NCBI RefSeq assembly: GCF_023015865.1
Contig: NZ_JALKBC010000008.1
Location: 124,001 to 188,000, forward strand
Direction of reading: 5' to 3'
Length of the DNA: 64,000 nucleotides
Source: Arenibacter sp. F26102
GTDB taxonomy: Bacteria; Bacteroidota; Bacteroidia; Flavobacteriales; Flavobacteriaceae
Position 1 is the first letter of the stretch; every line of letters begins with the position of its first letter. The notes under the pieces are model-generated. The model was not told the origin of the DNA and ran no database searches. It saw only the letters and a program-made list of their open reading frames with translations. The position numbers and the translations under genes are program-made. This document shows positions 257 through 52,655 of this stretch, in pieces.

Positions 257-690
257 TCTGTCTCCCAAGACAGTGCGATAAATTGAAACATACCTCATTC
301 AATGACTATTTATTATTAAACAAACACATGCCTTGAACCTTACAATCCATGCAGCAATAGAATGGATATTACTATAAGGTAATGACCAATATCATATTAG
401 ATCACCTTCATAATTACTTCCTTTGTTATTACAATTGCAACACCTTATCGTGTGCCGTAATCCAATCTTGTTCAAACAACGATTAAGAATCCGGATTATA
501 TTGAAAAAGGACTTTCCAATAATAAAAACGTCCATTTGAGTCCAATGAAAAAAAGGAAAACATATCATTTAGAATGGTATTTCATGTACCCACTGATTTG
601 GAACCAAGGATACCCCCCAAAATTAGTGAAGGTCATTTATTGCAAAATCCAAATTAATTGAATCATGAACAATTATTAACTCCGACTAAC
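257..690. other. 434-base intergenic region and long pfkB leader
   Basis: This gap holds the operator at 382-395 and its -7 element at 418-425. That leaves a leader of roughly 260 nt before the likely pfkB start. An open frame at 461-661, with an ATG at 545, would encode 38 residues (starting MKKRKTYHLEW). I do not recognise it and see no ribosome binding site, so it is not called as a gene. It could be a decayed gene or chance. Confidence 0.5.
382..395. promoter_or_regulatory. Crp/Fnr-type operator upstream of pfkB-glk
   Basis: ATGACCAATATCAT is identical to the copies at 32324 and 36555. The centre is 388.5. Rightward, TTCCTTTG at 418-425 ends exactly 36.5 bp from the centre and differs from TAnnTTTG only at its second base. 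Leftward, the equivalent octamer is poor. Confidence 0.7.
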
Positions 691-1632
691 ATGCGTAAAA
701 AAATAGTAACTCTTACATTAAATCCCGTATTGGACAAAAGCGTTACAGTAGCTGGCATTAGCCCTAACACGAAACTTCGTTGTACTGCGCCAACTTACGA
801 TGCGGGAGGAGGTGGCATTGATGTATCCCGTGCCGTTAAAAAATTGGGAATGGATTCACTCTGTATATATCTCGCAGGCGGTCCTACCGGAGAACATTTA
901 AAACAACTTTTGGACAAGGCAGGTATTGACCAATTAGCGATTCCCATTAGGGGATGGACACGCGATAATCTTGCTGTTACCGATACCATTACCAATTTAC
1001 AATACCGCTTTGGGGTTCCTGGACCAAATGTAGAAAAAGAAGAATGGGAAACCCTACTTGATCAATTGGAAAAAAATTTGGAAGAAGGTGACTATTTGGT
1101 GGCCAGCGGTAAATTGCCGCCTGGAATTCCCGATGATTTTTACGTTCAGGTAGCCGAAGTGGCCAAAAATAAAAAGTCAAGGTTTGTATTGGACACTTCC
1201 GGTGAGGCTTTGGTAAAGGCCACTAAATCCAAAGTTTTTATGCTTAAACCCAATTTGGGCGAGCTAAGTTCCTTATGCGGGGTAGAATCCATATCCGCTA
1301 TGGAACTGGAACCATTGGCCAAAAAGTTTTTGAATGAGCATGATTGTGAGATACTAGTAGTCTCTTTGGGTGCAAAAGGAGCCCTATTGGCTACTAAAAA
1401 CCTAATGGAGCATATTCCCGCACCCACTGTTCTACAAAAAAGTACCATTGGAGCGGGTGATAGTATGGTGGCAGGTATGATCGTGAGTCTGCTTCAGGGC
1501 AAAACCTATAGTGAGATGGTAAAATATGGTGTAGCCTGTGGTACTGCAGCTACCATGCATGAAGGTACTCAACTATGCAATAAGAACGATGCGGATAATT
1601 TGTACCAATGGGTCCTAAAGACACAAAAGTAA
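691..1632 (+). CDS. pfkB: 6-phosphofructokinase, PfkB type
   Basis: The product is a 313-residue ribokinase-fold sugar kinase that phosphorylates fructose 6-phosphate with ATP in glycolysis. It follows the E. coli PfkB pattern closely from the N-terminus (TLTLNPVLD, then KLRCTAP and a GGGGIDVSRA substrate loop). It has SGKLPPG in the middle and the family's anion-hole/catalytic motif STIGAGDSMVAGM near residue 265, where the Asp of GAGD is the base. E. coli PfkB is 309 residues. A TTG in frame at 658 would add 11 residues, but the ATG at 691 places the start where PfkB proteins begin. glk follows 60 bases downstream, so the pair probably forms one transcript from the operator-promoter at 382-425. 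pfkB is also a member of the mycobacterial DosR regulon, which fits the stress context here. Confidence 0.9.
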   Translation: MRKKIVTLTLNPVLDKSVTVAGISPNTKLRCTAPTYDAGGGGIDVSRAVKKLGMDSLCIYLAGGPTGEHLKQLLDKAGIDQLAIPIRGWTRDNLAVTDTITNLQYRFGVPGPNVEKEEWETLLDQLEKNLEEGDYLVASGKLPPGIPDDFYVQVAEVAKNKKSRFVLDTSGEALVKATKSKVFMLKPNLGELSSLCGVESISAMELEPLAKKFLNEHDCEILVVSLGAKGALLATKNLMEHIPAPTVLQKSTIGAGDSMVAGMIVSLLQGKTYSEMVKYGVACGTAATMHEGTQLCNKNDADNLYQWVLKTQK

Positions 1633-1692
1633 ACCAGCAAAAAGTCGATAAATATGGACAAGAACAAAGCTATTGCATAAAAGATTCCTACC

Positions 1693-3853: not shown

Positions 3854-3867
3854 ATGACATCTATCAT
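3854..3867. promoter_or_regulatory. Bidirectional operator between usp and pta-ackA
   Basis: ATGACATCTATCAT, centre 3860.5. Leftward: TAATTTTA read on the minus strand at 3831-3824, exact 36.5-bp spacing, toward the usp at 2836-3699. Rightward: GATCTTCG at 3890-3897, same spacing but only four of six consensus bases, toward pta. Confidence 0.75.
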
Positions 3868-6042: not shown

Positions 6043-6065
6043 CTTAAATAGATAAATTTAATACT

Positions 6066-7708: not shown

Positions 7709-7722
7709 ATGACATATATCAT
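7709..7722. promoter_or_regulatory. Bidirectional operator, DUF2892 gene and 7786 operon
   Basis: ATGACATATATCAT, centre 7715.5. Rightward: perfect -7 element TAAATTTG at 7745-7752, 36.5 bp from the centre, 33 bases before the ATG at 7786. Leftward: TTACTTTG on the minus strand at 7686-7679, also 36.5 bp, one mismatch. Confidence 0.85.
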
Positions 7723-7785
7723 TTCAGGGGTCATTAGGTTTAAATAAATTTGGAACCGACCTCATTATTTAACATATAAATTATC

Positions 7786-12554: not shown

Positions 12555-12568
12555 ATGATTAATATCAT
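12555..12568 (-). promoter_or_regulatory. Operator upstream of the sigma-factor operon
   Basis: ATGATTAATATCAT, centre 12561.5. Leftward -7 element CATTTTTG on the minus strand (12532-12525), five of six consensus bases, exact 36.5-bp spacing, 32 bases before the ATG at 12493. Confidence 0.78.
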
Positions 12569-13195: not shown

Positions 13196-13209
13196 ATGAT
13201 TTAAATCAT
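13196..13209. promoter_or_regulatory. Perfectly palindromic bidirectional operator
   Basis: ATGATTTAAATCAT is a perfect 14-bp palindrome, centre 13202.5. Rightward: perfect -7 element TAACTTTG at 13232-13239, toward the YtxH operon. Leftward: TAACTTGG on the minus strand, 13173-13166, one mismatch, toward the 12630 gene. Both have 36.5-bp spacing. Confidence 0.9.
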
Positions 13210-14230: not shown

Positions 14231-15298
14231 TTAAAAATCTGCCACAGTTCTCAGTCCCTCTACGTCTAAAATAATAATCCTTCTTCCATGATCCGTGGTA
14301 ATTAAACCTTCATCCTTAAAATCTGACAAAGTGCGGATGGCCGTTTCCGTGGCCGTACCGATCATTCCGGCAAAATCCTCTCTGGGGATTCCTAATCCAC
14401 CATTTGGTTTATCCAATATAACATTCTTATCATAAAGCTCCAAAAGGGCCTTCGCAGCCCTCTGCCTTACCGAAGCAAAAGCCATATCCACTAATTGTTC
14501 CTGCATGTGCATGAGATTATTGGAAATCATTCCAATGAATTTTTGAGAAACCACCGAGTTGCCATAAAGCAATTTCGTAAAATCATCCCTAGGTATGGTG
14601 CACAATTCGGAGTCCTCCAAAACCATAGCACTTTCAACATATGCTATTTTGGAATTTAACAGGGAAAGTTGCCCGATAAAATCTCCCGGTCCAAAAATTC
14701 CCGTCACAAATTCCTTTCCAGTTTCAGTGCCTTTATAGGTCTTGACACTGCCCTGTTCTATAAAAAATAAGGAATGGGCATTGTCACCTTCCCAAAAGAT
14801 GATATCCCTTTTATTATACTTTTTAAGGGAATAGTTCTTGGAAAGACTTTTAAGATCGCTGTATTGTGACGCCTCGTCCATAAATTTATTGAGCCCTTCC
14901 ATATTTTTGACTATCTCCTTTTTAAGAAAGTCGCTCTTTCGTAGACGTGAGGCAATGGCTTCCAACAGTTCTTTTTCCTCAAAGGGTTTTGTCAAATAAT
15001 CGTCTGCCCCCAAATTCATTCCCAATCTCACCTCTGCCCTATCGGTTTTTGCAGTCAAAAATATAAAGGGTATACTAGAAGTTGCACTGTTTTTACCCAC
15101 TAGTTCCAATACCCCATAACCGTCCAGTTCCGGCATCATAATATCACATATAATTATGTCTGGCCTAAACTTTTCGGCAAGTTCGACCCCTATTTTCCCA
15201 TTCTCGGCCGTAACCACCTCATAGTTGGACAATTCCAATATATCGGCCGTATTTTCCCTTACATCCTTGTTGTCCTCAATTAACAGAATTTTTTTCAT
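14231..15298 (-). CDS. Receiver-Crp/Fnr fusion response regulator 1
   Basis: The product has 355 residues. The receiver domain (about 1-120) has phospho-acceptor Asp52 (CDIMMPELDG), acidic ED at 8-9, Thr82 and Lys104 (YLTKPF). A cyclic-nucleotide-binding-type beta-roll follows (about 150-265, FFIEQGSVKTYKG..GPGDFIGQLSLL), then a Crp-type helix-turn-helix (IPREDFAGMIGTATETAIRTLSDFKDEGLI). The recognition helix keeps the Glu and Arg (T-E-T-A-I-R) that in Crp/Fnr read the TGA half-site. No cysteine cluster for an Fe-S centre is seen. It overlaps the upstream LOV kinase gene by 23 bases, so the two are translationally coupled and form a cognate pair. It is a candidate activator for the TGA-N6-TCA operators in this window, including its own at 18188. 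Confidence 0.9.
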   Translation of the reverse strand: MKKILLIEDNKDVRENTADILELSNYEVVTAENGKIGVELAEKFRPDIIICDIMMPELDGYGVLELVGKNSATSSIPFIFLTAKTDRAEVRLGMNLGADDYLTKPFEEKELLEAIASRLRKSDFLKKEIVKNMEGLNKFMDEASQYSDLKSLSKNYSLKKYNKRDIIFWEGDNAHSLFFIEQGSVKTYKGTETGKEFVTGIFGPGDFIGQLSLLNSKIAYVESAMVLEDSELCTIPRDDFTKLLYGNSVVSQKFIGMISNNLMHMQEQLVDMAFASVRQRAAKALLELYDKNVILDKPNGGLGIPREDFAGMIGTATETAIRTLSDFKDEGLITTDHGRRIIILDVEGLRTVADF

Positions 15299-18029: not shown

Positions 18030-18303
18030 TGTCGATTTGTGGAATTTTACTAAAAAATGTCTTCACCAAACAGAAAAGGAAAGACCAGTTGAGCGTTATT
18101 GGTTCTAGTAAACCAACACTATTGTAAACTTTTTTAGTCTGTTCCTACCAAGTTCCACAAATGTATTGGTATCCTAAGCTGTAAGAAATGACATCCGTCA
18201 TAATACAACATATGAATTCAATAGATTCTTTAAACCTGATAATGGTCATGTGCGTATTTGTTTATATGGAATAATTTTGAATAAAATTTAAAATTAAAGA
18301 CTT
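18030..18303. other. Divergent promoter region between kinase and patatin
   Basis: 274 bases containing the operator at 18188-18201 and the leftward -7 element at 18158-18165. The kinase leader would be about 120 nt. I see nothing else. Confidence 0.5.
18188..18201. promoter_or_regulatory. Operator upstream of the LOV kinase/regulator operon
   Basis: ATGACATCCGTCAT, centre 18194.5. Leftward: perfect -7 element TACATTTG on the minus strand (18165-18158), 36.5-bp spacing. Rightward, toward patatin, no good octamer occurs at that spacing. Confidence 0.82.
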
Positions 18304-33906: not shown

Positions 33907-33920
33907 ATGACAATAATCAG
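33907..33920. promoter_or_regulatory. Operator between TerB-like gene and PAS kinase 2
   Basis: ATGACAATAATCAG, centre 33913.5. Leftward: TATTTTTA on the minus strand (33884-33877), exact 36.5-bp spacing. Rightward, a perfect TATCTTTG sits at 33932-33939, only 25.5 bp from the centre, one helical turn closer and directly before the kinase ATG at 33944. Confidence 0.75.
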
Positions 33921-36554: not shown

Positions 36555-36568
36555 ATGACCAATATCAT
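36555..36568 (+). promoter_or_regulatory. Operator upstream of the first array usp
   Basis: ATGACCAATATCAT, centre 36561.5. Perfect -7 element TAATTTTG at 36591-36598, 36.5-bp spacing, 23 bases before the ATG at 36622. Confidence 0.92.
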
Positions 36569-36621: not shown

Positions 36622-37476
36622 ATGAAAAATATACTGTTCCCCACGGACTTTTCCAATAATTCTTGGACCGCAATTGAATATGCCATTGAGCTGTTCAAGA
36701 GCGTTCCCTGTAATTTTTATGTACTCCATGTAGGCCGTTTAAGCCAATCCGGTGTGCAGAGCAATTCGTTCATAATGCCTTCCAAAACTGACAATGAATC
36801 CCTCAAGGATAATCTAACTGACATCTTTGCCCGTATCCAAAACATTACCGACAGCAAAAATCATCATTTTATTGCACTTCAAGATTATGGAAACCTTGTA
36901 GATATTATTCGCAAGACCGTATTGGATAAAAAGGTAGATCTTATTGTCATGGGAACCAAAGGGTCTTCAGGTTTAAAAGAAACCATTTTAGGTAGCAATA
37001 CCGGAAATGTCATGACCAAAGTACACTGCAATCTATTGGTTATACCTGAAAAGGCAGAACCATCCTTACCAAAGAAAATTGCCTTTCCTACAGATTATAA
37101 TATTTTCTATTCGCACTCCATATTGGAAGCCATTTCAAAAATGCTCCGTACCTCCAAGGCCAACTTAAAGGTGGTAAATGTCACCAAACCCAATGTGAAA
37201 TTTAATCTGGCCCAAAATGAGAACATGGTTTATTTACAGGACTATTTACTGGAACTTCATGACAAATCGTATAGTATTCACAACTTAGAGGACAATAGGG
37301 CAAAAAATGCCATCGAGAGATTCGTAATCCATAAAAAAATAGATATGGTAATCATGGTAGCCAAGAACCTCAATTTTCTACAACAACTGTTTCTTGACAA
37401 TACCATTAAAAAAATTAGTTTCCAAACCAGAGTACCGTTGCTGGTATTGCACGAGCAAGCTACGTATACATCTTGA
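36622..37476 (+). CDS. Array Usp 1 (tandem UspA domains)
   Basis: The product has 284 residues. The first UspA domain opens ILFPTDFSNNSW and has the ATP motif GTKGSSGLKETILGS (about 112-126). The second opens IAFPTDYNIFYS and ends VIMVAKNLNFLQQLFLDNTIKKI without the motif. Usps of this form probably bind ATP only in the N-terminal half. It is a monocistronic unit with its own operator. The product is most like the one at 41139 (both have GSNTGNV after the motif and MVAKNLNFL in the second domain), suggesting a duplicated pair. Confidence 0.92.
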   Translation: MKNILFPTDFSNNSWTAIEYAIELFKSVPCNFYVLHVGRLSQSGVQSNSFIMPSKTDNESLKDNLTDIFARIQNITDSKNHHFIALQDYGNLVDIIRKTVLDKKVDLIVMGTKGSSGLKETILGSNTGNVMTKVHCNLLVIPEKAEPSLPKKIAFPTDYNIFYSHSILEAISKMLRTSKANLKVVNVTKPNVKFNLAQNENMVYLQDYLLELHDKSYSIHNLEDNRAKNAIERFVIHKKIDMVIMVAKNLNFLQQLFLDNTIKKISFQTRVPLLVLHEQATYTS

Positions 37477-37486
37477 CCAATAGCTA

Positions 37487-37500
37487 CTGATAAATATCAT
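37487..37500 (+). promoter_or_regulatory. Operator upstream of the four-gene usp operon
   Basis: CTGATAAATATCAT, centre 37493.5. Perfect -7 element TAAATTTG at 37523-37530, 36.5-bp spacing, 22 bases before the ATG at 37553. Confidence 0.9.
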
Positions 37501-37552
37501 AGGTTTTATATGCCGCAACCAATAAATTTGGTAGGTATACAAAAGAAAACCT

Positions 37553-38398
37553 ATGAAAACCGTTTTGATTCCTACCGATTTTTCCAGCAGTGCAATGCAT
37601 GCTATTGATTATGCCTTGAATCTGTATAAATGCGAACGAACCAATTTTTACTTCCTACATGCCTATGCCGACGATGTCTATGGCCCGTTTAAGACCAATG
37701 GCGAAACCTCTTTTGAACAGCAAAAGGAAGCCATTAAAAATAATACGGATAAATCCTTAGAAGATCTAACCCAAAAACTCATCCTTAGAGAGCATAATCC
37801 GAAACACACCTACAAAACACTTTCGGCATTCGAAACCCTGGTAGATGCAGTTAACGATTGTGTTAACGAACTAAATGTGGACATTGTGATTATGGGAACA
37901 AAGGGACAAACGGCCGACAAAAAAATTACTTTCGGCAGCCATACGGTACAGGTTTTCAAATATGTGCAATGTCCTGTACTGGCTATTCCCCTTGATTACA
38001 AGTACCAACAACCAAAGAAAATACTGTTTCCCACAGACTACATGCTGCCCTACAAGCGTCGGGAATTGAAGCTTTTGGACACCTTGGCGTCCGAATATAA
38101 ATCAGAGATACATTGCCTTTACATTTCAGACTTTGAGGATTTAAGCCATAGACAGGTAGATAACCAGCGCTTTCTTAAGGAGGCTCTGTCCAGCGCATTC
38201 CTGTTTTTCGAAATACGACCCACTAAGAAAAAAGCGGAGGTGATTATGGAATACATCAAAAAAAATAACATCAACCTATTGGTCATGGTAAACTCACGTC
38301 ATTCATTCCTAGAAGACATGCTTTACAGATCTACAGTAGACGAAATTGGGCTACGGCTGAAACTTCCTTTTTTGGTAATGCAAAATTTACCCCGATAA
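37553..38398 (+). CDS. Array Usp 2
   Basis: The product has 281 residues. The first domain starts VLIPTDFSSSAMHAIDYALNLY and its ATP motif is GTKGQTADKKITFGS, with the loop residues changed from the common ATG/SSG to QTAD. The second domain starts ILFPTDYMLPYKRRELK and ends LLVMVNSRHSFLEDMLYRSTVDEIG, without the motif. It is the first gene of an operon with 38416, 39282 and 40168, from the promoter at 37487-37530. Confidence 0.92.
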   Translation: MKTVLIPTDFSSSAMHAIDYALNLYKCERTNFYFLHAYADDVYGPFKTNGETSFEQQKEAIKNNTDKSLEDLTQKLILREHNPKHTYKTLSAFETLVDAVNDCVNELNVDIVIMGTKGQTADKKITFGSHTVQVFKYVQCPVLAIPLDYKYQQPKKILFPTDYMLPYKRRELKLLDTLASEYKSEIHCLYISDFEDLSHRQVDNQRFLKEALSSAFLFFEIRPTKKKAEVIMEYIKKNNINLLVMVNSRHSFLEDMLYRSTVDEIGLRLKLPFLVMQNLPR

Positions 38399-38415
38399 AC
38401 TTAAAAGATGAAAGG

Positions 38416-39285
38416 ATGAAAAAAATATTATTGCCCACCGATTTTTCCGAAAATGCATGGAACGCTATAGACTATACCCTCAACTATTTCAAAAATGAAA
38501 AGTGTCTGTTCTATATATTGCATACCTATACCCCAACTTTTTATAGGGTAGATTATATGATGGGTGGTCCCGTAAATAGTGCCATTCCCGATAAGGACGT
38601 TGAGCTGGCACAAGCGGGTTTGGAAAAAACACTAGCGGATATCAAAAATAATTATGCCAATAAAAATCACCGGTATAAGACCCTGTCCTCCTTTAATATT
38701 CTGACCGATGAGATTCAAGAAGTTACCGAACGAGAGCATATAGACATGATTGCCATGGGAACCCAAGGAGCTACAGGTGCCAAAGAAATATTTATAGGAA
38801 CCCGTACCGTCCATGTCATCAAAAAAGCAAAAATACCAGTATTGGCCATCCCAAGCGGTTATACCTATAAGGAAATCAAAACCATTGTTTTCCCCACGGA
38901 TTATATCAGGCCTTATGACAAAGAAGCATTAGGCTTTCTCACAAATATGTCCAAGATGTTAAAAGCCAAATTGATCGTCCTAAATGTCAAGGAAGAGTAT
39001 GTATTGAGTGAAGAACAAATTGCTCATAAAAAAACATTGGATGTGTTCCTTAAAACCGCGGACCATTCCTTTGAGCAGGTCAAGGGTGAATTAATGCCAA
39101 ATGCCATACATGAATATGTGGAGAAACATAGAATAGGACTTTTGGCTATAATGAATCGGAAGCATTCATTTTTGGAAAGATTGATCACCAAATCTACGGT
39201 GGACTCCATAGGATACCATTCCAGGATTCCCTTTTTGGTAATACCAGAGACCTGGAAAGACCTCCCTAAAAAGTCCAAAACATGA
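38416..39285 (+). CDS. Array Usp 3
   Basis: The product has 289 residues. Start ILLPTDFSENAWNAIDYTLNYF; ATP motif GTQGATGAKEIFIGT, ending in Thr rather than Ser, both of which are allowed. The second domain (TIVFPTDYIRPYDKEALGFL) ends LLAIMNRKHSFLERLITKSTVDSIGYHSRIPFLVI. It lies 17 bases after Usp 2, and its last four bases overlap the start of Usp 4, so translation is coupled. Its C-terminal half is close to those of Usp 2 and Usp 4. Confidence 0.92.
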   Translation: MKKILLPTDFSENAWNAIDYTLNYFKNEKCLFYILHTYTPTFYRVDYMMGGPVNSAIPDKDVELAQAGLEKTLADIKNNYANKNHRYKTLSSFNILTDEIQEVTEREHIDMIAMGTQGATGAKEIFIGTRTVHVIKKAKIPVLAIPSGYTYKEIKTIVFPTDYIRPYDKEALGFLTNMSKMLKAKLIVLNVKEEYVLSEEQIAHKKTLDVFLKTADHSFEQVKGELMPNAIHEYVEKHRIGLLAIMNRKHSFLERLITKSTVDSIGYHSRIPFLVIPETWKDLPKKSKT

Positions 39286-40139
39286 AAAAGATCCTGTTGC
39301 CCACCGATTTTTCCGATAATGCATGGAATGCCATATTTACAGCTGTAAAACTCTATGCCTCCGTAAAGTGTAAATTTCTCATTTTACATGCCTACGAACC
39401 AAAAGCCATGAATATATTAGGAAAAAAAAGTCAACAACGATTAGGAGTCATTTATGATTCTTTGGAAAAGTATTCGACCCAGGAACTGGACAAGATATTG
39501 GAGTACCTCAATAAAAACCACAACAACGCCAACCATAGCTTTGAAACCATTTCCAAGTCGGACACTTTGGAAAAATCCATTAAGGAATTGACAACCGCCG
39601 AGGAGGTAGACCTTATCGTCATGGGTACCCAAGGCGCTACTGGAGCCAAGGAAATCTTTTTGGGAAGTAATACGGTAAAAGTCCTAAAGCAACTAAAAAA
39701 TAATTCTGTTTTGGTGGTTCCCAAAGACTATAACTTCCAAAAATTAAAGACAGTGGTTTTTCCAACGGATTATACCAGAATGTATAAAAAGTTGGAGCTA
39801 TTGCCTATGACAGAAATGGCCAAACTTTGGAAAGCTACTATAAAGGTAATACACGTAGGAGTTGAATTTAAACTAAGCAATGTCCAAAAAACTAATATGG
39901 GAATTTTGGAAGAGCGGCTAGAGGGTTCGGATTATTCCTTACACGAGATAGCTTTTGAAGCCAACGTAGAGCAAAGTGTGGAACAGTATATATCGGAAAT
40001 CCGTGCGGACTTGCTAACCGTGTTAAGGTACCAGCACAGCTTTTGGGAAAGAATTATCGGAGAGCCTGTTATTAAAAAATTAGCATTCCATTCCAAGGTA
40101 CCGGTATTGTTTCTTCCCGAGCAATCCCTACGAAAATAG
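39282..40139 (+). CDS. Array Usp 4
   Basis: The product has 285 residues with start overlapping Usp 3 (ATGA). N-terminal domain ILLPTDFSDNAWNAIFTAVKLY; ATP motif GTQGATGAKEIFLGS, nearly identical to Usp 3. The second domain (TVVFPTDYTRMYKKLELLPM) ends TVLRYQHSFWERIIGEPVIKKLAFHSKVPVLFLPEQ. Usp 3 and Usp 4 look like a recent tandem duplication that has diverged mainly in the middle. Confidence 0.92.
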   Translation: MKKILLPTDFSDNAWNAIFTAVKLYASVKCKFLILHAYEPKAMNILGKKSQQRLGVIYDSLEKYSTQELDKILEYLNKNHNNANHSFETISKSDTLEKSIKELTTAEEVDLIVMGTQGATGAKEIFLGSNTVKVLKQLKNNSVLVVPKDYNFQKLKTVVFPTDYTRMYKKLELLPMTEMAKLWKATIKVIHVGVEFKLSNVQKTNMGILEERLEGSDYSLHEIAFEANVEQSVEQYISEIRADLLTVLRYQHSFWERIIGEPVIKKLAFHSKVPVLFLPEQSLRK

Positions 40140-40167
40140 ACCATATGTTATTTTAAAAGATTTAAAG

Positions 40168-41028
40168 ATGAAAGCAAAACATATACTGTTACCCACAGAC
40201 TTTTTGGCCAATGCCCGTAACGCCATAGATTATGCCATTTACCTCTTTGAAAAAGTGGAATGTGTTTTCCATATTCTGCATGCGTTCGAGGTAGGCCCAT
40301 CCAACTTGAGCAGCAACATGGGAAAAGCTAAAGATACACGCCTGTTCAGGGCAATAAAGGACGAATCGGAAAGAGACGTAAAAACATTGGTTAGCGAATT
40401 GGAGTCGGTCAACAAAAATAAATTACACACTTTCGAGGAATTAAGTGTAGCCGATTCTTTGGTAAATGCCATTGGAAGAACCTCAATAGATAAGGGAATT
40501 GACTACATTTTTATGGGAACCAAAGGGTCATCAGCACTGAAAGAAGTTTTTATGGGTAGTAACACAGTAAAGGTTATACAAAAAATCGACTTCTGCCCTA
40601 TTATTGCCGTACCTGAAAATTATGACTTTGACATTCCGGATGAAATAGCCTTTGCCACAAATTTTGAACATATTTACAGTGAGGTAGAACTGGTACCACT
40701 TATAAATTTGGCCAAATTATGGCACTCCAAGATTGTCATTGTCCATATAGATACGGGCAAAAAATTACTGGCCCATCAAAAAACAGCCAGAGATCTTTTA
40801 ACGGAAATGTTTCATGGAATTAAATACAGTTTTGAAGAGGTTAATGGACATGCAAATATTTCCGGTGCCATTAATAGCTATGCTCGTGACAATAAAAACA
40901 TAGGTATGATCGCCATGGTTAATTATTGGCATAGTTTTTTTGAAAAACTCACAAAAGAAAACGTGATCAAGAGGGTCGCCTTTAGCACAGAAGTACCTTT
41001 TTTGATATTTCCCCTGATTGAACCCTAG
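40168..41028 (+). CDS. Array Usp 5
   Basis: The product has 286 residues. Start ILLPTDFLANARNAIDYAIYLF; ATP motif GTKGSSALKEVFMGS. The second domain opens IAFATNFEHIYSEVELVPL, where the usual PTD is ATN, and ends IAMVNYWHSFFEKLTKENVIKRVAFSTEVPFLIF. It is probably the last gene of the operon from 37553, 28 bases after Usp 4, with no operator in between. Confidence 0.92.
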   Translation: MKAKHILLPTDFLANARNAIDYAIYLFEKVECVFHILHAFEVGPSNLSSNMGKAKDTRLFRAIKDESERDVKTLVSELESVNKNKLHTFEELSVADSLVNAIGRTSIDKGIDYIFMGTKGSSALKEVFMGSNTVKVIQKIDFCPIIAVPENYDFDIPDEIAFATNFEHIYSEVELVPLINLAKLWHSKIVIVHIDTGKKLLAHQKTARDLLTEMFHGIKYSFEEVNGHANISGAINSYARDNKNIGMIAMVNYWHSFFEKLTKENVIKRVAFSTEVPFLIFPLIEP

Positions 41029-41063
41029 ACCCGGAATAGCATTATACCCTAATTGAGGACGAT

Positions 41064-41077
41064 ATGATATTTGTCAT
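41064..41077 (+). promoter_or_regulatory. Operator upstream of array Usp 6
   Basis: ATGATATTTGTCAT, centre 41070.5. -7 element TACTTTTA at 41100-41107, one mismatch, 36.5-bp spacing, 31 bases before the ATG. Confidence 0.85.
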
Positions 41078-41138
41078 TTGGGAACAGTCCCAGAGAGATT
41101 ACTTTTAACTAATTGAACTGAACCAACAATAAACTGTC

Positions 41139-41978
41139 ATGAAGAATATATTGATACCCACGGACTTTTCTGACAATGCTTGGAACGCCATTAAATATGG
41201 AACTGCATTGTACCATAAAACCAGATGCACTTTTCATATAATTCATATCAATCCCATTTCCTACAATTCCGGCGGAGAAGCTGCCATGTATGTTTCACCA
41301 GAATTACTTGAGGAAACCATTTTAAAGGAAAGCAATGAAAAATTGGAACATTTACTTAAAGATGTTGAACGCTTGCCGCTTAACACCAAACATACCTTTA
41401 AAACAACAGCTCTCTACGGATTTTTTACCGATCACATAAAGCAGGAGGTCAAGGATAAAAATATCGACCTGATCATTATGGGGACTAAAGGAGCTACCGG
41501 CCTAAAAGCTGTTTCCTTGGGAAGCAACACAGGTAACGTGCTCACCAAAGTAAGATGTGCCGTTCTGGCTGTTCCCGAGGATGCCGAGTACACTTCCCCA
41601 AGGGAAATAGGATTTCCTACAGATTACCAATTAAGCTATGAAATAAAGGTTCTTGACCAAATTAAGGAACTTGCCTTAATGCACAATTCCGCATTACGGT
41701 TCCTTTATGTAGCCAAAAAAGGAGAAAACCTTAACGAAATGCAGCTGAATAACAAGGAATTTTTAAAAAACTATTTCAGGGAAAACGAACACTCCTTTTA
41801 TGTTCTAACAGAAAAAAAACTGGATGATGCTGTTCAAGCCTTTGTAGAAAGTAGGGACCTGGACATGTTGGTGATGGTGGCCAAGAACTTAAACTTTCTA
41901 GAGCGCATCCTCTTTAAACCAATGGTAGAAAAGATAAGTTACCATACCAAGATTCCATTTCTAATAGTACACGAATAA
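41139..41978 (+). CDS. Array Usp 6
   Basis: The product has 279 residues. Start ILIPTDFSDNAWNAIKYGTALY; ATP motif GTKGATGLKAVSLGS followed by NTGNVLTKVRC. The second domain (IGFPTDYQLSYEIKVLDQI) ends LVMVAKNLNFLERILFKPMVEKISYHTKIPFLIVHE. It is a single-gene unit with its own operator, followed by the convergent trxA, and closest in detail to array Usp 1. Confidence 0.92.
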   Translation: MKNILIPTDFSDNAWNAIKYGTALYHKTRCTFHIIHINPISYNSGGEAAMYVSPELLEETILKESNEKLEHLLKDVERLPLNTKHTFKTTALYGFFTDHIKQEVKDKNIDLIIMGTKGATGLKAVSLGSNTGNVLTKVRCAVLAVPEDAEYTSPREIGFPTDYQLSYEIKVLDQIKELALMHNSALRFLYVAKKGENLNEMQLNNKEFLKNYFRENEHSFYVLTEKKLDDAVQAFVESRDLDMLVMVAKNLNFLERILFKPMVEKISYHTKIPFLIVHE

Positions 41979-42001
41979 AAATAATACAGGGATACTTAAA
42001 A

Positions 42002-42301
42002 TTAAATATGCTGGCGAACAACACTTATTATATCGTTCTTTTGTAGCACTCCAGACTGCCTCCAAACCTGTTTTCCATTTTTAAACAGCAACATGGTAGG
42101 CACTCCCTTAACTTGATAAGTACTTGCCAAGGATTGATTCTTATCTACATCTATCTTAACAATTTTCAGTGCGTTGCCCATTTCGTCCTTAACCTCCTTC
42201 AAAATAGGTGCCAGCATTTTACAAGGTCCGCACCAATCGGCATGAAAATCAACTAAAACTGGGGTATCTGAATTAATGATATTACTAAAACTACTCTTCA
42301 T
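42002..42301 (-). CDS. trxA: Thioredoxin
   Basis: A 99-residue cytoplasmic disulfide reductase. The active site is ADWCGPCKM (Cys pair near residues 25-28), with the cis-proline loop VKGVPTMLLF and GKQVWRQSGVLQKNDI following. The start at 42301 is preferred over 42319 because the leftward -7 element lies at 42321-42328, so the longer frame would begin at about the transcription start. It sits inside the Usp array on the opposite strand and shares the operator at 42351 with Usp 7. This suggests thioredoxin is co-induced with the Usps. Confidence 0.94.
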   Translation of the reverse strand: MKSSFSNIINSDTPVLVDFHADWCGPCKMLAPILKEVKDEMGNALKIVKIDVDKNQSLASTYQVKGVPTMLLFKNGKQVWRQSGVLQKNDIISVVRQHI

Positions 42302-42350
42302 AATTATTTTTTTTGCCAAGTAAAATTACCAAAACAATGAAGATACTGAA

Positions 42351-42364
42351 CTGACCGATATCAT
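42351..42364. promoter_or_regulatory. Bidirectional operator, trxA and array Usp 7
   Basis: CTGACCGATATCAT, centre 42357.5. Leftward: TAATTTTA on the minus strand (42328-42321). Rightward: TAGTTTTA at 42387-42394. Both have one mismatch and exact 36.5-bp spacing. The leaders are about 15 and 19 nt. Confidence 0.88.
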
Positions 42365-42417
42365 GGTTTTCAAAATTATTCTGATCTAGTTTTACGGCAC
42401 TAAAGTTATAAAATATC

Positions 42418-43257
42418 ATGAAACGAATTTTGCTTCCTACCGATTTTTCAGACTATTCCTTTCAGGCCATAGGTTACGCTTTGAGCCTTTTCAAAAATAT
42501 AAATTGCAGGTTTTTCCTGATTCATACCTATATGCCTCCAGTGTATAATGCGGAATATTTAGTTGGTAGTCCGGGACTTATAGGTCTGGGCGATGTAATG
42601 CAGGAAACATCCATGACACAACTGGAAAAACTAAAAAATCGACTTCAAAAGGAACACAATAATTCCAAGCACAGTTTTACTGTACAAACCTCATTTAACA
42701 CCCTCTTGAACGAGGTTATGGAAACAGTTGAATCCGAAGGTATAGATTTGGTGGTTATGGGGACCAAAGGTGCCACAGGAGCTAAGGAAATCCTTTTTGG
42801 GACGAATACTGTACACATTATAAAAAAAGCCAATTGCCCTGTTCTAGTTATACCCCCAAATTTTGAGTACGAAAATCCCTTGGAAATATTATTTCCAACA
42901 GATTTTGAAATAGGGTACAATAAAGAATTACTAGCACCTCTTTTAGATATCGCTGAGGAGCATGGATCCCAAATTAATGTACTGCATGTATCCACAGGAT
43001 ATAAGCTTACTAAAGATCAAGAAAAACAAAAAAAGGGACTGGAAAAGATTTTAGAAAAAAGGGCGCTGTTTCACGATGTGCCCAGCAATGACATTATAAA
43101 TGCCATCAATGCCTTCCAAGCCAAGGAAAAAATTAACCTCTTGGTCATGATTCAGAACAAACATACCTTTTTTGAGCGTCTATTTATTGAGCCTGTAATT
43201 AAAAAAATAGGTTTTCATGTCAATATCCCTTTTATGGTTATTCCACAATTAAAATAA
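42418..43257 (+). CDS. Array Usp 7
   Basis: The product has 279 residues. Start ILLPTDFSDYSFQAIGYALSLF; ATP motif GTKGATGAKEILFGT. The second domain (ILFPTDFEIGYNKELLAPL) ends LLVMIQNKHTFFERLFIEPVIKKIGFHVNIPFMVI. It is the first gene of a pair with Usp 8, six bases downstream. Confidence 0.92.
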   Translation: MKRILLPTDFSDYSFQAIGYALSLFKNINCRFFLIHTYMPPVYNAEYLVGSPGLIGLGDVMQETSMTQLEKLKNRLQKEHNNSKHSFTVQTSFNTLLNEVMETVESEGIDLVVMGTKGATGAKEILFGTNTVHIIKKANCPVLVIPPNFEYENPLEILFPTDFEIGYNKELLAPLLDIAEEHGSQINVLHVSTGYKLTKDQEKQKKGLEKILEKRALFHDVPSNDIINAINAFQAKEKINLLVMIQNKHTFFERLFIEPVIKKIGFHVNIPFMVIPQLK

Positions 43258-43263
43258 CGGAGA

Positions 43264-44112
43264 ATGAAAAATATACTTGTAGCGACAGATTTTTCCAATA
43301 ATGCGTATTGCGCCCTTTTCTATGCAACAAAACTTTTGGCCTCCCAGTCCTGTACATTTCACATTCTGAACACCTATTCCGAGCTCACCATTTCTTCAGG
43401 CAAAACACTTCCGGTCTTGGGGATTAAAAAATATTTGAAACAATTGGAAACTGAATCCCAGGAAAAAATCACCCATATTAAGCACAAAATAGTCTTGGAT
43501 AACGAGAATCCGCTTCACACCTTCAATACTATTTCCCTAAAAGGTGATTTGGTCGATATTATAGAGCAAAAGGTCAAAGAACTTAGTATTGATTTAATAA
43601 CCATGGGGAATAAAGGGCTGACAGAGACTGCCGACATATTCTTTGGGAGCAATTCCATAAAGGTAGCCAATAACATAAAAGAATGCCCATTGTTGGCCAT
43701 ACCGGGTGAAATGGATTTTCACCCACCAAAGGAAATAGCCTTTGTTACCGACCTGAGAAAGAATTGTGATCAAAAAACACTTGCCCCTCTTTTGTACATT
43801 TCCTCTTTATCCAAGGCCTCCATTAGGGTTGTGCACGTACATGAACAACATATTTTGAACACGACCCAAGAAGCGAACAGAAAGCAATTGGAAGAAGCTC
43901 TAAGCTCCCTAGGACATTCTTTTCAATGGATAAGGAACTTTGACGACAAGGCTAAGGTTATAGACGTTTTTTTGGAAAAACTGAAAGTGGATATGTACGC
44001 CATGGTGCACGAAAAAAGGAGCCTTTTTGAAAAACTTACCCGAGAGCCTATAGTGAAAGATCTAAGTATGTATTCCGATATTCCATTTTTAATCCTTCCA
44101 CCGTTGGCATGA
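43264..44112 (+). CDS. Array Usp 8, divergent ATP loop
   Basis: The product has 282 residues. Start ILVATDFSNNAYCALFYATKLL. The ATP motif is GNKGLTETADIFFGS: the spacing is kept, but the Thr after the first Gly is Asn and the loop is acidic. The second domain opens IAFVTDLRKNCDQKTLAPL and ends MYAMVHEKRSLFEKLTREPIVKDLSMYSDIPFLIL. It is the most divergent member of the array. Its stop codon (44110-44112) lies inside the operator of the next gene. Confidence 0.9.
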   Translation: MKNILVATDFSNNAYCALFYATKLLASQSCTFHILNTYSELTISSGKTLPVLGIKKYLKQLETESQEKITHIKHKIVLDNENPLHTFNTISLKGDLVDIIEQKVKELSIDLITMGNKGLTETADIFFGSNSIKVANNIKECPLLAIPGEMDFHPPKEIAFVTDLRKNCDQKTLAPLLYISSLSKASIRVVHVHEQHILNTTQEANRKQLEEALSSLGHSFQWIRNFDDKAKVIDVFLEKLKVDMYAMVHEKRSLFEKLTREPIVKDLSMYSDIPFLILPPLA

Positions 44113-44122
44113 CGATTGTCAT
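44109..44122 (+). promoter_or_regulatory. Operator overlapping the stop codon of Usp 8
   Basis: ATGACGATTGTCAT, centre 44115.5. -7 element TATATTTA at 44145-44152, one mismatch, 36.5-bp spacing. The TGA half-site is also the stop codon of the preceding gene. Confidence 0.85.
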
Positions 44123-44178
44123 AGTAACTGTGACTATAGCCCATTATATTTAGTACATCAATCTAAAGAAGAATTGTT

Positions 44179-45024
44179 ATGGACAAAAGAATATTAATTC
44201 CTACCGATTTCTCCAAGAACGCACTGAATGCCGCGCGCTATGCCTTGGATCTATATGCAAAGCTCAACTGCGAATTCTACTTTTTAAACGTTTTCCGGTT
44301 GGATCATTACACTACCAATACCTTGATAATGCCAGAGCCTGGCAGCCCGGAATTTGAAGCAGCAAAAGCTAAATCGGAAGAAGGTTTTGCCAAACTATTG
44401 GACATGCTGGAGCTTCACCACGATAATCCCAAACATAGCTATCACACCATTTCTTCTTTCAATTTTCTTTCGGAGGCCATTAAACAGACCATAGCAAGTA
44501 AAGATATAGAACTTGTGGTCATGGGCACCCAAGGAGCTACTGGTGCCAAAGGGATTATTTTTGGAAGTAATACTGTGAATGCCATGGAGAAAATAAGGGA
44601 ATGCCCAGTAATGGCCATTCCTGAGGATCTACGGTTTTCGGTTCCCAAGGAAATTGTCTTCCCCACCAATTATAAATCCACCTTTAGGCGTAAGGAATTA
44701 AATTATTTGATAGAGATTGCTTTGATGCACCAAACATCTATAAGCGTTTTGCATTTTAAAAAGGAAACTTCCTTGGACGAGAGCCAAGAGGCCAACAAAC
44801 AGCTCTTGGACGACATTCTGGAAAATGTAGACCATAGCTTCCACACCCTTACTGATAAAAACGTAGCCCGAGGAATAACTTCTTTTGTAGAAAGTAGAAA
44901 GAGTGACATGATTGCGTTTATCAACAAAAAGCATTTCCTCTTTAATAGCATATTTTCAAGGCCATTGGTCAAGGAGATTGGCTATGATGCCAAAGTTCCT
45001 ATTTTGGCTTTAAACGAATCCTAG
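44179..45024 (+). CDS. Array Usp 9
   Basis: The product has 281 residues. Start ILIPTDFSKNALNAARYALDLY; ATP motif GTQGATGAKGIIFGS. The second domain opens IVFPTNYKSTFRRKELNYL (PTN instead of PTD) and ends MIAFINKKHFLFNSIFSRPLVKEIGYDAKVPILAL. It is the last Usp of the array and is expressed from its own operator at 44109. The next gene starts 152 bases later with no clear operator. Confidence 0.92.
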   Translation: MDKRILIPTDFSKNALNAARYALDLYAKLNCEFYFLNVFRLDHYTTNTLIMPEPGSPEFEAAKAKSEEGFAKLLDMLELHHDNPKHSYHTISSFNFLSEAIKQTIASKDIELVVMGTQGATGAKGIIFGSNTVNAMEKIRECPVMAIPEDLRFSVPKEIVFPTNYKSTFRRKELNYLIEIALMHQTSISVLHFKKETSLDESQEANKQLLDDILENVDHSFHTLTDKNVARGITSFVESRKSDMIAFINKKHFLFNSIFSRPLVKEIGYDAKVPILALNES

Positions 45025-48782: not shown

Positions 48783-48789
48783 AACAGAG

Positions 48790-48803
48790 ATGACAAATCT
48801 CAT
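48790..48803 (+). promoter_or_regulatory. Operator upstream of the 48873 gene
   Basis: ATGACAAATCTCAT, centre 48796.5. -7 element TAACTTTA at 48826-48833, one mismatch, exact 36.5-bp spacing, 39 bases before the ATG. It is the only copy with C rather than R before the right TCA. Confidence 0.8.
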
Positions 48804-49280: not shown

Positions 49281-49520
49281 TTGTTTAACTGACCATCGTC
49301 ATATTATTTCTTCAGAGCATGGGGTAACTTGACCACCGTTCCAAACAATAATGATTAATTGAAAAAACTGTTGACATAAATTAATTTCATGATTTAATTG
49401 GGGAGAATGGCCAAAGGCTTTTGAACTTGTTCCCCATAGCAGAGCGCCTGCCACAACAAAATCTTAATGATGTTTTATGATGTACAGTCATTAGTCAATT
49501 ATTTCAATAAAAATTATAAC
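49281..49520. other. Leader region of the lipoprotein-ldhA operon
   Basis: 240 bases with the operator at 49289-49302 directly after the preceding stop, a weak -7 element at 49325-49332, and then about 180 bases without evident features. Confidence 0.4.
49289..49302 (+). promoter_or_regulatory. Operator upstream of lipoprotein-ldhA
   Basis: CTGACCATCGTCAT, centre 49295.5. TAACTTGA at 49325-49332 is at exact 36.5-bp spacing but matches only four of six consensus bases, so the promoter call is weaker than the others. Confidence 0.6.
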
Positions 49521-51165: not shown

Positions 51166-52572
51166 CAACGGACTAAAAACTTTACCAAAACCTTCCTTTA
51201 GTTTTTCGGCCCATGGTCTTTTAAGGTATTCTTCATAGGAGAGCATCCTACTAAGATTGGCATCCTTTAGAAAATCTTCCTTCAACAATTTAGCAAATGG
51301 CTCATCGTAAACAATGGCATTCACTTCATAGTTCTGTTCAAAACTTCTATCGTCCAAATTGGCCGTACCTATTGTTGCAATGGCATCATCACTAACAATA
51401 ATTTTACTGTGCAAAAATCCATCAGGAAATAGATAGATTTTTATACCCGATTTAAGCATAGGCTCAAAATAGGATCTCACACTCCAGCTTACTATTTTGT
51501 TGTCCGCATTTTCGGACACCATTAATCGTATATCCACACCACCAAGTGCTGCAGTCTGTAAGGCTTGCATAATGGCCTGCCCTGGGATAATATAAGGGTT
51601 GGTTATGTACAGATAATCTTTCGCCTTATTAATAATGGTGAAATAAGTCTGTTCCAAAGAAGGAAAATCATCATCCGGGCCCCCAGAGACGATTTGTACA
51701 AGTTTACCTTCACTATTCTCAATGACGCCTTTATCACTATCCAAGGGTAGTAAAGGAATTGTCTTTTGACAAACCAAATACCAATCCATTGCAAAAACAA
51801 AGTCCAAATGACTCGCTGCCGTACCCTCCAATCTTAAGTGCATATCGTGCCAGTTGCCTAATTCAACATCGCCTTTCAAGTATTTATCCGATACGTTTAT
51901 TCCTCCGGTAAATGCCACCTTGCCATCGACCACAATTATTTTTCTGTGATTTCGATAATTCAAGGATGAAAAAAAACGACCAAATTTGAAAGGGAGAAAA
52001 GGATATACCTCTACTCCAATTGCCATTAATTTCTTTAAATAGGCCTTGCTTAATGAAAAGCTGCCAATACCATCGTAAATCATTCTTATCTGGACTCCCT
52101 GCGCAATTTTACGTTCAAAAAGAAGTATTAACCTATTGGTGAGTTCCCCTTCTTCAAAAATATAATATTGAAGGTTTATTCGGTTCTGGGCATTTTCCAA
52201 AGCCTCGAAGATGGATTCGAAGGTTGTTTTTCCGTCTTTTAACAATCGTAATTCGTTGTACTGTGTGGGAGGGAAATGTGCATTTCGATAAACCAAGGTC
52301 ATAAGCTTGCGGTACTTCCCGCTCATGGATGTCATATGTTGCATTAAGGGCTCCGGCAAGTTTAGAAACGCCTTCTTCTTTAATTTCAACAGTTTATTCT
52401 TTCTGCGATTTCTTCCCAAAAGAAGATAAAGGAACATCCCACCTACCGGAATGGTAAAAATAGCTAATAGCCAAGCTAAACTTTTTGAAGGTTTGGCACC
52501 GTGTAAAAGAATACTTATGATAATGGCTAAGGCAATAAGTAAATAAAAACTAAGAAAAACTGCAGTCCACAT
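51160..52572 (-). CDS. cls: Cardiolipin synthase
   Basis: A 470-residue phospholipase-D-family enzyme joining two phosphatidylglycerols into cardiolipin. Two N-terminal transmembrane helices (about 3-21 and 30-50) and a basic linker are followed by two HKD motifs: HRKIIVVDGKVAFTGG (about 206-221) and HSKIIVSDDAIATIGTANLDDRSF (about 387-410). Cardiolipin content commonly rises in stationary and stressed cells. The operator at 52642 lies upstream, with a near-consensus -7 element one base off the usual spacing. It overlaps ldhA at its 3' end. Confidence 0.93.
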   Translation of the reverse strand: MWTAVFLSFYLLIALAIIISILLHGAKPSKSLAWLLAIFTIPVGGMFLYLLLGRNRRKNKLLKLKKKAFLNLPEPLMQHMTSMSGKYRKLMTLVYRNAHFPPTQYNELRLLKDGKTTFESIFEALENAQNRINLQYYIFEEGELTNRLILLFERKIAQGVQIRMIYDGIGSFSLSKAYLKKLMAIGVEVYPFLPFKFGRFFSSLNYRNHRKIIVVDGKVAFTGGINVSDKYLKGDVELGNWHDMHLRLEGTAASHLDFVFAMDWYLVCQKTIPLLPLDSDKGVIENSEGKLVQIVSGGPDDDFPSLEQTYFTIINKAKDYLYITNPYIIPGQAIMQALQTAALGGVDIRLMVSENADNKIVSWSVRSYFEPMLKSGIKIYLFPDGFLHSKIIVSDDAIATIGTANLDDRSFEQNYEVNAIVYDEPFAKLLKEDFLKDANLSRMLSYEEYLKRPWAEKLKEGFGKVFSPLL

Positions 52573-52641
52573 GCTTCCTTTTTAGTTGACATTGGAGGAT
52601 AAGTCCAATTATCAAAGTTCGGAAATCGTGAGGGTATAACT

Positions 52642-52655
52642 ATGATATTTATCAG
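52642..52655 (-). promoter_or_regulatory. Operator upstream of cls
   Basis: ATGATATTTATCAG, centre 52648.5. The best leftward -7 element is GAACTTTG on the minus strand (52620-52613), one mismatch, 35.5 bp from the centre instead of 36.5. This is the one clear spacing exception. Confidence 0.65.

What the first reader, a model, noticed from the sequence alone, without database searches (positions are those of the whole stretch)
382..52655. A 19-operator Crp/Fnr-like regulon covering most of the window
Nineteen intergenic sites fit (A/C)TGAY-N4-RTCA(T/G), with one exception at a single position. They sit at 382, 3854, 7709, 12555, 13196, 18188, 22661, 29983, 32169, 32324, 33907, 36555, 37487, 41064, 42351, 44109, 48790, 49289 and 52642. 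TGA-N6-TCA is the geometry of Crp/Fnr-family operators, but the consensus is neither the E. coli Crp nor the Fnr site. The downstream genes are stress, redox, chaperone, fermentation, Usp and membrane genes. Housekeeping genes (xth, upp) and the 54-63 kb locus lack it. I know of no described regulon in this group with this motif and content.
Basis: partly seen in the sequence, partly recalled or inferred. Interest (0 to 1): 0.92.

Follow-up and report, generated by a model that had tools for sequence, protein, structure and literature searches.

The report
Shared low-oxygen switch of marine flavobacteria
Twenty short DNA sites in this stretch of a marine flavobacterium mark promoters that appear to be switched on together when oxygen runs low, probably by two different kinds of regulator (an FNR-type oxygen sensor and a two-component regulator fused to the same kind of DNA-binding domain) that read the same site; the same promoter layout recurs in many genomes of the class Bacteroidia.

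Summary
A Bacteroidetes -7 box (TAnnTTTG) lies exactly 22 bp from the motif edge in 22 of 40 flanks (18 of 20 sites); no other offset from 0 to 49 has more than 2 flanks. The operator centre is then -41.5, the class II activator position. The full promoter recurs genome-wide, in 80 relatives' loci and in 191 of 296 Bacteroidia genomes. Outside the window it precedes fnr, ccoI, ccoS-ccoNO, hemN and nirK: a low-oxygen (FNR/FixK-type) regulon. Two regulator types share one recognition helix, and site number tracks both in 149 Flavobacteriaceae genera: both 22, FNR only 7, receiver-Crp only 12, neither 0 (medians; not corrected for phylogeny). The kinase beside RR-Crp2 has a FixL-like PAS with the aligned heme-ligand His in 79 of 79. 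Binding, signal and phosphorylation are inferred. New variant of a known kind.

The parts
382..395 (+). operator 1; faces pfkB (658, +); box TTCCTTTG at 418-425 (5/6)
   Evidence: PfkB
3854..3867 (.). operator 2, between divergent genes; faces Usp (2836-3699, -; box TAATTTTA at 3824-3831, 5/6) and pta-ackA (3949-7256, +; weak box GATCTTCG, 4/6)
   Evidence: Pta/AckA/Usp
7709..7722 (+). operator 3; faces 7786 (128 aa, no Pfam match) and ABC1 kinase (8178); box TAAATTTG at 7745-7752 (6/6)
12555..12568 (-). operator 4; faces 11726-12493 (-), sigma-region-4-like protein (below Pfam cut-off); box CATTTTTG (5/6)
13196..13209 (.). operator 5, bidirectional; faces YtxH gene (13289, +; TAACTTTG, 6/6) and 12630-13121 (-; TAACTTGG, 5/6)
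18188..18201 (-). operator 6; faces HK1-RR-Crp1 operon (18029-14231, -); box TACATTTG at 18158-18165 (6/6)
22661..22674 (.). operator 8, bidirectional; faces Hsp20 and P-type ATPase (22594-19366, -; TACTTTAG, 5/6) and P-type ATPase (22762, +; TAATTTTA, 5/6)
29983..29996 (-). operator 9; faces M50 peptidase with CBS domains (28850, -); box TATCTTCG (5/6)
32169..32182 (-). operator 10; faces WG-repeat protein and SDR (32117-30715, -); box TACTTTAG (5/6)
32324..32337 (+). operator 11; faces Usp (32543, +); box TAATTTTG at 32360-32367 (6/6)
33907..33920 (-). operator 12; faces 33450-33851 (-), box TATTTTTA (5/6). On the HK2-RR-Crp2 side the nearest good box is TATCTTTG at offset 11, i.e. operator centre near -30.5, not an activating position
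   Evidence: sequence printed
36555..36568 (+). operator 13; faces Usp 36622; box TAATTTTG at 36591-36598 (6/6)
37487..37500 (+). operator 14; faces the apparent Usp operon 37553-41028; box TAAATTTG at 37523-37530 (6/6)
41064..41077 (+). operator 15; faces Usp 41139; box TACTTTTA (5/6)
42351..42364 (+). operator 16; faces Usp 42418 and 43264; box TAGTTTTA (5/6)
44109..44122 (+). operator 17; overlaps the last four bases of Usp gene 43264-44112; faces Usp 44179 and perhaps the genes after it; box TATATTTA (5/6)
48790..48803 (+). operator 18, the one-off site (ATGACAAATCTCAT); faces 48873; box TAACTTTA (5/6)
49289..49302 (+). operator 19; faces 49467 and D-2-hydroxyacid dehydrogenase (50158); box TAACTTGA (4/6)
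52642..52655 (-). operator 20; faces cardiolipin synthase (51160-52572, -); best box at offset 21, not 22 (5/6)
14231..15298 (-). RR-Crp1: receiver + cNMP-binding fold + Crp HTH, recognition helix GTATETAIR
15276..18029 (-). HK1: multi-PAS histidine kinase, partner of RR-Crp1 by operon
33944..35455 (+). HK2: PAS-PAS-HisKA-HATPase; first PAS most like FixL heme PAS among solved structures; His66 the same in 79 of 79 aligned kinases
35463..36515 (+). RR-Crp2: receiver + cNMP-binding fold + Crp HTH, recognition helix GIATESLIR
36622..45024 (+). tandem block of nine Usp genes (36622, 37553, 38416, 39282, 40168, 41139, 42418, 43264, 44179), five of them with their own operator

Best explanation
The sites are class II activator operators of a low-oxygen (FNR/FixK-type) regulon. 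A Crp/Fnr-family dimer binds MTGAY-N4-RTCAK at -48 to -35 (centre -41.5) in place of a -33 element and recruits RNA polymerase to a TAnnTTTG -7 box; a few sites can fire in both directions. In this organism (Arenibacter-like, Flavobacteriaceae) three regulators carry the same recognition helix and probably share the operator: a stand-alone FNR-like protein with four invariant cysteines (predicted oxygen-labile Fe-S cluster), encoded beside the cbb3 oxidase genes, and two response regulators whose receiver domain is fused to the same DNA-binding module, each next to a PAS histidine kinase gene. When oxygen falls, the FNR would regain its cluster and the kinases would phosphorylate the receiver-Crp proteins; both inputs would then switch on microaerobic respiration, anaerobic heme synthesis, acetate fermentation, chaperones, cation ATPases and most Usp proteins. 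Shown by computation: sites, geometry, gene content, shared helix, co-occurrence. Inferred: binding, oxygen as signal, cluster, phosphorylation, activation rather than repression.
For: Enrichment 19 against 0.86. Offset 22: 22 of 40 flanks, other offsets at most 2; 2000 shuffles of the flanks give at most 6 at any offset. The -7 box spans -12 to -5 in F. psychrophilum (PMC9723704, passage read), which puts the operator centre at -41.5. Genome-wide, operator and box with a gap of 14 to 32 bases give 74 hits (reversed control 14), 42 of them at offset 22, 29 of these outside the window. 80 relatives' loci: 443 sites against 16 reversed; offset 22 has 423 hits, every other offset at most 28. Class: 191 of 296 genomes have the full promoter; the reversed control is nonzero in 10 (my count of the table). 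Targets: fnr, ccoI, ccoNO, hemN, nirK, ccoS. hemN behind a site in 6 of 6 genomes examined. 18 of 20 Usp genes of the genome behind a site by my reading. Helix E..IR in 113 of 113 receiver-Crp and 59 of 59 close stand-alone proteins; four cysteines in 59 of 59, three of which align with FNR cysteines in the PDB. HK-RR-Crp-[site]-Usp-FNR cassette beside ccoI or ccoS (L275, L278) or without these in the stretch (L274).
Against: No expression or binding data. The co-occurrence test is not corrected for phylogeny, and a low-oxygen lifestyle could drive both regulators and sites. Of the 30 genomes scored FNR-minus, five have a divergent stand-alone relative as best match, and two more (G344, G397) have one scoring nearly as well as their receiver-Crp. 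G403 has 6 sites with neither regulator above threshold, and G315 has an FNR-like protein but 0 sites. In the class sample 105 of 296 genomes have no full promoter and many have only one or two. In the window the HK2-RR-Crp2 operon itself has no box at offset 22, and pta, 49467 and cls have weak or shifted boxes. Four of 59 oriented promoters (score 5 or more) in the G000 stretches face no ORF within 450 bp. In the six genomes examined only 30 of 81 oriented promoters face a gene matched to my reference list, so most of the regulon there is outside that list. In 80 relatives' loci 93 of 245 Usp-like ORFs have no core site within 250 bp. One FNR cluster ligand is in a different position from the known FNR, and the protein scores below NCBIfam's FNR cut-off.
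Confidence: 0.78

Rival explanations
1. Only the stand-alone FNR reads the operator; the receiver-Crp proteins have other targets and merely sit in the regulon.
For: The fnr gene carries a site and lies beside cbb3 genes; FNR-only genomes keep sites (51 genomes, median 7).
Against: In 25 FNR-minus genomes the best match to FNR is an open frame of receiver-Crp size (350-397 aa), yet they have 3 to 34 sites, median 12; two of the 25 (G344, G397) also have a stand-alone protein scoring nearly as well. hemN and ccoS in G406 and hemN in G316 are behind a site. G339, without a close FNR, keeps a window-like island with its sites. Site number rises by about 13 with receiver-Crp after genome size and FNR are included.
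Confidence: 0.1
2. Only the receiver-Crp proteins read it, and FNR has a different site.
For: Both receiver-Crp genes lie inside the island; the effect per genome is larger for receiver-Crp.
Against: 51 genomes with FNR but no receiver-Crp match at E 1e-70 have sites (median 7, one with zero), in three of the four examined in front of ccoI and ccoS and in all four in front of hemN; the fnr gene itself carries a site; the helix is shared.
Confidence: 0.07
3. The site is a repressor operator that keeps these genes off in oxygen.
For: CRP-family proteins can repress when they overlap a core promoter (recalled); site 33907 sits 11 bases from a box on the HK2 side.
Against: The dominant spacing is the class II activation position and the usual -33 element is replaced.
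Confidence: 0.06
4. The motif is a repeat or nucleoid-protein site unrelated to transcription.
For: Palindromic and dense in one island.
Against: Fixed spacing to a promoter element in 80 loci, sequence-diverse N4, reversed control near zero.
Confidence: 0.01

Closest known systems
FNR/ANR/FnrL anaerobic regulons of Proteobacteria (content recalled)
   Same: Crp/Fnr dimer, TGA-N6-TCA core, activator position -41.5, cbb3 oxidase, hemN, ccoI-type ATPase, fermentation and Usp targets; a site before the fnr gene itself
   Different: Half-site ATGAY or CTGAY instead of TTGAT (0 of 40 half-sites start with T); recognition residue Ile where FNR has Ser; Bacteroidetes -7 box; the third N-terminal cysteine position is Asn, Ser or Gly and a Cys at 53 is invariant instead; probably shared with response regulators
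FixL-FixJ-FixK cascade of rhizobia (recalled)
   Same: Heme-PAS-like kinase next to a response regulator; output through a FixK-type Crp/Fnr domain onto cbb3-related genes
   Different: Receiver and Crp/Fnr domain are one protein (RR-Crp), so the FixJ and FixK steps are fused; heme in the kinase is unproven
DosR dormancy regulon of mycobacteria (recalled)
   Same: Similar cargo: several Usp, Hsp20, PfkB, cation P-type ATPase, M50-CBS protein; heme-kinase input
   Different: Regulator is a LuxR-type response regulator with an unrelated site; no homology of the DNA-binding part
F. psychrophilum oxygen-limitation response (PMC9723704, passages read)
   Same: Same family; cbb3 oxidase strongly induced and heme synthesis enzymes induced by oxygen limitation
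   Different: A word search of the main text finds no Fnr or Crp; supplements were not seen

Membership tests
Crp/Fnr-type class II activator regulon | Operator centred at -41.5 from the transcription start | tested here: met
   Offset 22; -7 box position from PMC9723704. Start sites inferred, not mapped
FNR (oxygen-labile [4Fe-4S]) regulator | Crp/Fnr fold with cNMP-binding-like and HTH_Crp domains | tested here: met
FNR (oxygen-labile [4Fe-4S]) regulator | Four cysteine ligands, three N-terminal and one central | tested here: inconclusive
   Four invariant Cys in 59 of 59, but two N-terminal, one at 53 and one central; three of the four align with cysteines of FNR in the PDB
FNR (NCBIfam NF008365 subfamily) | Score above the curated cut-off | tested here: not met
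   104 bits against cut-off 228; best NCBIfam match, but not a member of that subfamily
FNR regulon of E. coli type | TTGAT-N4-ATCAA operator (recalled) | tested here: not met
   First base A 32, C 8, T 0 of 40 half-sites
FNR-type regulon content | cbb3 oxidase, hemN, site before fnr | tested here: met
FNR-type regulator | Oxygen-dependent activity | not testable with these tools
   needs biochemistry
Two-component response regulator | Phosphorylatable receiver with adjacent histidine kinase | tested here: met
   Receiver Pfam match for both window proteins. In the 113 relatives the Asp motif was part of my selection, so it is no test; the Lys-Pro motif is in 108 of 113 and the acidic pocket in 109 of 113. 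ORF homologous to HK2 directly upstream in 78 of 78 loci with room. Phosphorylation itself not tested
FixL-type oxygen sensor | Heme PAS with proximal His | tested here: inconclusive
   FixL 1d06 best PDB hit, E 1.8e-13; aligned His in 79 of 79, aligned Arg in 70 of 79; heme not shown, and PAS domains with this His need not bind heme
FixLJ-FixK cascade | Separate FixJ and FixK proteins | tested here: not met
   One fused protein

The most novel reading that the evidence does not exclude
Flavobacteria have collapsed the rhizobial FixL-FixJ-FixK relay into a heme-PAS kinase and a single receiver-FixK fusion, and that fusion shares one operator and one rigid -41.5 promoter with an Fe-S FNR carrying a relocated cluster ligand. 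Two chemically independent oxygen sensors thus act as a gate on the same promoters, and the same promoter code runs through Bacteroidia, with the regulators swapping over evolution while the core targets stay.
Probability: 0.35. Interest if true: 0.82.

Novelty: new variant of a known kind. Interest (0 to 1): 0.64.

Why it matters
Promoter control in Bacteroidota is poorly mapped (my judgement). This gives an operator, an exact position relative to the -7 box, a list of targets and named regulator candidates that can be looked for in any genome of the class with a one-line pattern. It offers a reason why Usp blocks, fermentation genes, chaperones and cbb3 oxidase could move together in flavobacteria, and a natural experiment in regulator replacement: the same operator apparently served by FNR, by a two-component protein, or by both. 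It would make the question of how marine Bacteroidetes sense oxygen directly testable.

Tried and rejected
Reading the L096 target as nitrous-oxide reductase and the L105 target as azurin: both were my first guesses by eye; NCBIfam and Pfam show copper nitrite reductase with a cytochrome-like end, and a cytochrome c. Treating Arg92 of HK2 as the FixL distal Arg: the alignment points to Arg86 instead. Other Crp paralogues as the reader of the site: the C33, C55 and C22 proteins have different helices (GTVVETLAR, GTTRAVLNR, HTSRVVVSR) and were not pursued. Site 33907 as an activating site for HK2-RR-Crp2: rejected on spacing. Repeat or nucleoid-protein reading: rejected on spacing. Structure prediction, fold search and covariance models were not used; I judged that they would not bear on the question.

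Dropped or limited: co-occurrence thresholds (E 1e-50 for FNR, 1e-70 for receiver-Crp) were my choice; the genomes not listed (31 and 52) were taken as without a match, as the tool states. In one search, nine of 68 stand-alone proteins (E above 1e-40) were set apart; eight of them have other helices. 80 of the loci behind the helix and kinase counts are the 80 best matches to RR-Crp2 itself, so these counts are of close relatives. The own-genome list of core sites was cut by the tool at about 50 of 127 places. Target genes were compared in six of the 149 genomes, in stretches around the promoters listed. The count of 10 of 47 genomes with both genes within about 3 kb, the count of 10 control genomes and the 18 of 20 Usp genes were read by eye.
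Full report
What is there. The pattern MTGAY-N4-RTCAK matches the window 19 times; dinucleotide shuffles give 0.86 on average and at most 5. All are centred outside the genes on my list, and no exact match lies between 52656 and 64000. Counting both halves of each site, the first base is A in 32 and C in 8 of 40 half-sites, never T, so this is not the E. coli FNR site (TTGAT, recalled).

The key new fact. Flavobacteria use a -7 box, TAnnTTTG, at -12 to -5 (shown for F. psychrophilum; PMC9723704, passage read). Scoring this box at every offset from both edges of the 20 sites, offset 22 has 22 of 40 flanks at 5 or 6 of 6 matches, from 18 of the 20 sites; every other offset from 0 to 49 has at most 2. 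In 2000 shuffles of the flanks the maximum at any offset was 6. Counting back from -12, the 14-base operator occupies -48 to -35 and its centre is at -41.5. That is the class II activator position known for CRP and FNR (recalled). Some sites have a box on both sides, two of them with a gene facing each box (13196, 22661); 3854 also has a gene on each side, but a weak box (4 of 6) before pta. The two sites without a good box at offset 22 are 49289 (4 of 6) and 52642 (5 of 6 at offset 21).

Genome. The window is G000:C83:124001-188000 of a 5.44 Mb genome; the nearest named relatives of its RR-Crp2 are from Arenibacter. The core motif occurs 127 times in the genome against 50 for the reversed pattern. 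With a gap of 14 to 32 bases allowed, 74 operator-box combinations are found against 14 for the reversed pattern; 42 of the 74 fall at offset 22, 29 of them outside the window. In 34 stretches fetched mostly around hits, all 36 sites with a good box are intergenic; of the other 27, 14 are coding.

Targets. Inside the window: pfkB, pta-ackA, an ABC1 kinase, YtxH, patatin, Hsp20, two P-type ATPases, M50-CBS peptidase, SDR, Usp genes, D-2-hydroxyacid dehydrogenase, cardiolipin synthase and the operon of one kinase-receiver-Crp pair. Outside: an FNR-like gene divergent from ccoI, ccoS-ccoNO, hemN, a copper nitrite reductase with a cytochrome-like end, cytochrome c, DnaJ, FtsH, DeoC, SulP and more Usp genes. 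The genome has 20 genes with a Usp domain (26 matches, merged by me). By my reading 18 lie behind a site directly or in an apparent operon, 11 of them in the window, a few with a box of 4 of 6 or at offset 21; the stretches around the other two, C10:53087 and C8:86811, hold no core site. This looks like a low-oxygen regulon with a large survival wing.

Relatives. In 80 loci around RR-Crp2 relatives, 443 core sites stand against 16 for the reversed pattern; 419 are intergenic, every locus has at least one, and offset 22 has 423 box hits where no other offset exceeds 28. Of 245 Usp-like ORFs there, 152 have a core site within 250 bp upstream. The full operator-plus-box pattern is found in 191 of 296 genomes drawn across the class, often only once or twice; the reversed control is nonzero in 10 of 296 by my count.

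Which protein reads it. The genome has eight HTH_Crp matches, six over the cut-off. Three of those six, the stand-alone FNR-like protein and the two receiver-Crp proteins of the window, have the helix G(T/I)ATE(S/T)xIR; the other three differ. Among loci in hand, E, I and R of this helix are kept in 113 of 113 receiver-Crp and 59 of 59 close stand-alone proteins; of nine weaker stand-alone relatives, eight have other helices. FNR in the PDB has Ser where these have Ile, a plausible reason for the changed first base (inference). In 149 genomes, one per genus of the family, the number of full promoters was 22 (median, 47 genomes) with both regulators, 7 with FNR only (51), 12 with receiver-Crp only (30) and 0 with neither (21; 14 with none); 1905 sites in all against 15 in the reversed control. 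A linear fit gives +7.3 (SE 1.4) for FNR and +12.9 (SE 1.3) for receiver-Crp with genome size included. Of the 30 receiver-Crp-only genomes, five have a divergent stand-alone relative as best match; without them the median of 25 stays 12, range 3 to 34. Two of these 25 (G344, G397) also have a stand-alone protein that scores nearly as well. Against this reading: no correction for phylogeny, and exceptions such as G315 (FNR, 0 sites) and G403 (neither, 6 sites).

Same targets, different regulator. In two genomes with receiver-Crp only and four with FNR only, hemN is behind the promoter in 6 of 6; ccoS in four, ccoI in three, Usp in four. Only 30 of 81 oriented promoters in these six face a gene matched to my reference list from G000, so the periphery varies or lies outside the list. 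The two regulator genes are also linked: in 10 of 47 genomes with both they lie within about 3 kb (read by eye). L275 and L278 show HK, RR-Crp, a site, Usp and FNR in a row beside ccoI-like or ccoS-like genes; L274 shows the same row without those neighbours in the stretch. G339, which has no FNR-like protein at E 1e-50 and only a receiver-Crp as best match, keeps an island with much of the gene order of this window and its sites.

Signals. The FNR-like protein has Cys at 4, 7, 53 and 106 in 59 of 59 orthologues; three align with FNR cysteines and the position of the usual third N-terminal one is Asn, Ser or Gly. I infer a Fe-S cluster with one moved ligand. The receiver-Crp proteins have intact-looking receivers (Pfam; Lys-Pro motif in 108 of 113; the Asp motif was a selection criterion and is no test). 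An HK2 homologue lies directly upstream of RR-Crp2 in 78 of 78 loci with room; its first PAS is most like FixL in the PDB (1d06, E 1.8e-13). His66 aligns with residue 73 of that chain (my count), which I take to be proximal His194 (numbering recalled), and is the same in 79 of 79 kinases, with Arg86 in 70 of 79. Heme is therefore possible, not shown.

Verdict. It is a new variant of a known kind: an FNR/FixK-type class II regulon with its own operator, probably shared by an FNR and receiver-Crp response regulators, and widespread in Bacteroidia. No description of it showed in ten searches of the open library, which misses most subscription journals. On the second check I mended the circular Asp-motif count, added the reversed control, the Usp count and the two near-tied genomes; none of these moved the odds.

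Noticed in passing
window 33907-33920: Only operator that lies between a target and the HK2-RR-Crp2 operon; on the HK2 side a perfect -7 box sits at offset 11, which would place the operator over the core promoter (possible negative feedback).
   Followed up: partly
L089 6425-7111: FNR-like protein with an invariant Cys at 53 and Asn, Ser or Gly where FNR has its third N-terminal cysteine: possible relocated cluster ligand.
   Followed up: partly
window 7786-8172, 11300-11698, 48873-49280: Three small proteins (128-135 aa) in the island; two have no Pfam match and one only a sub-threshold one. A relative of the first also lies behind a site in G406.
   Followed up: no
window 46563-47408: ATP-cone plus Mrr-type nuclease domain protein following the Usp block, in a similar gene order in G339 (L280).
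   Followed up: no
window 11726-12493: Protein with a sub-threshold sigma-70 region 4 match behind its own operator; a possible second-tier regulator.
   Followed up: no
L096 3460-4920: Copper nitrite reductase with a C-terminal stretch weakly resembling CcoP cytochrome, behind a full promoter; suggests nitrite use under low oxygen.
   Followed up: no
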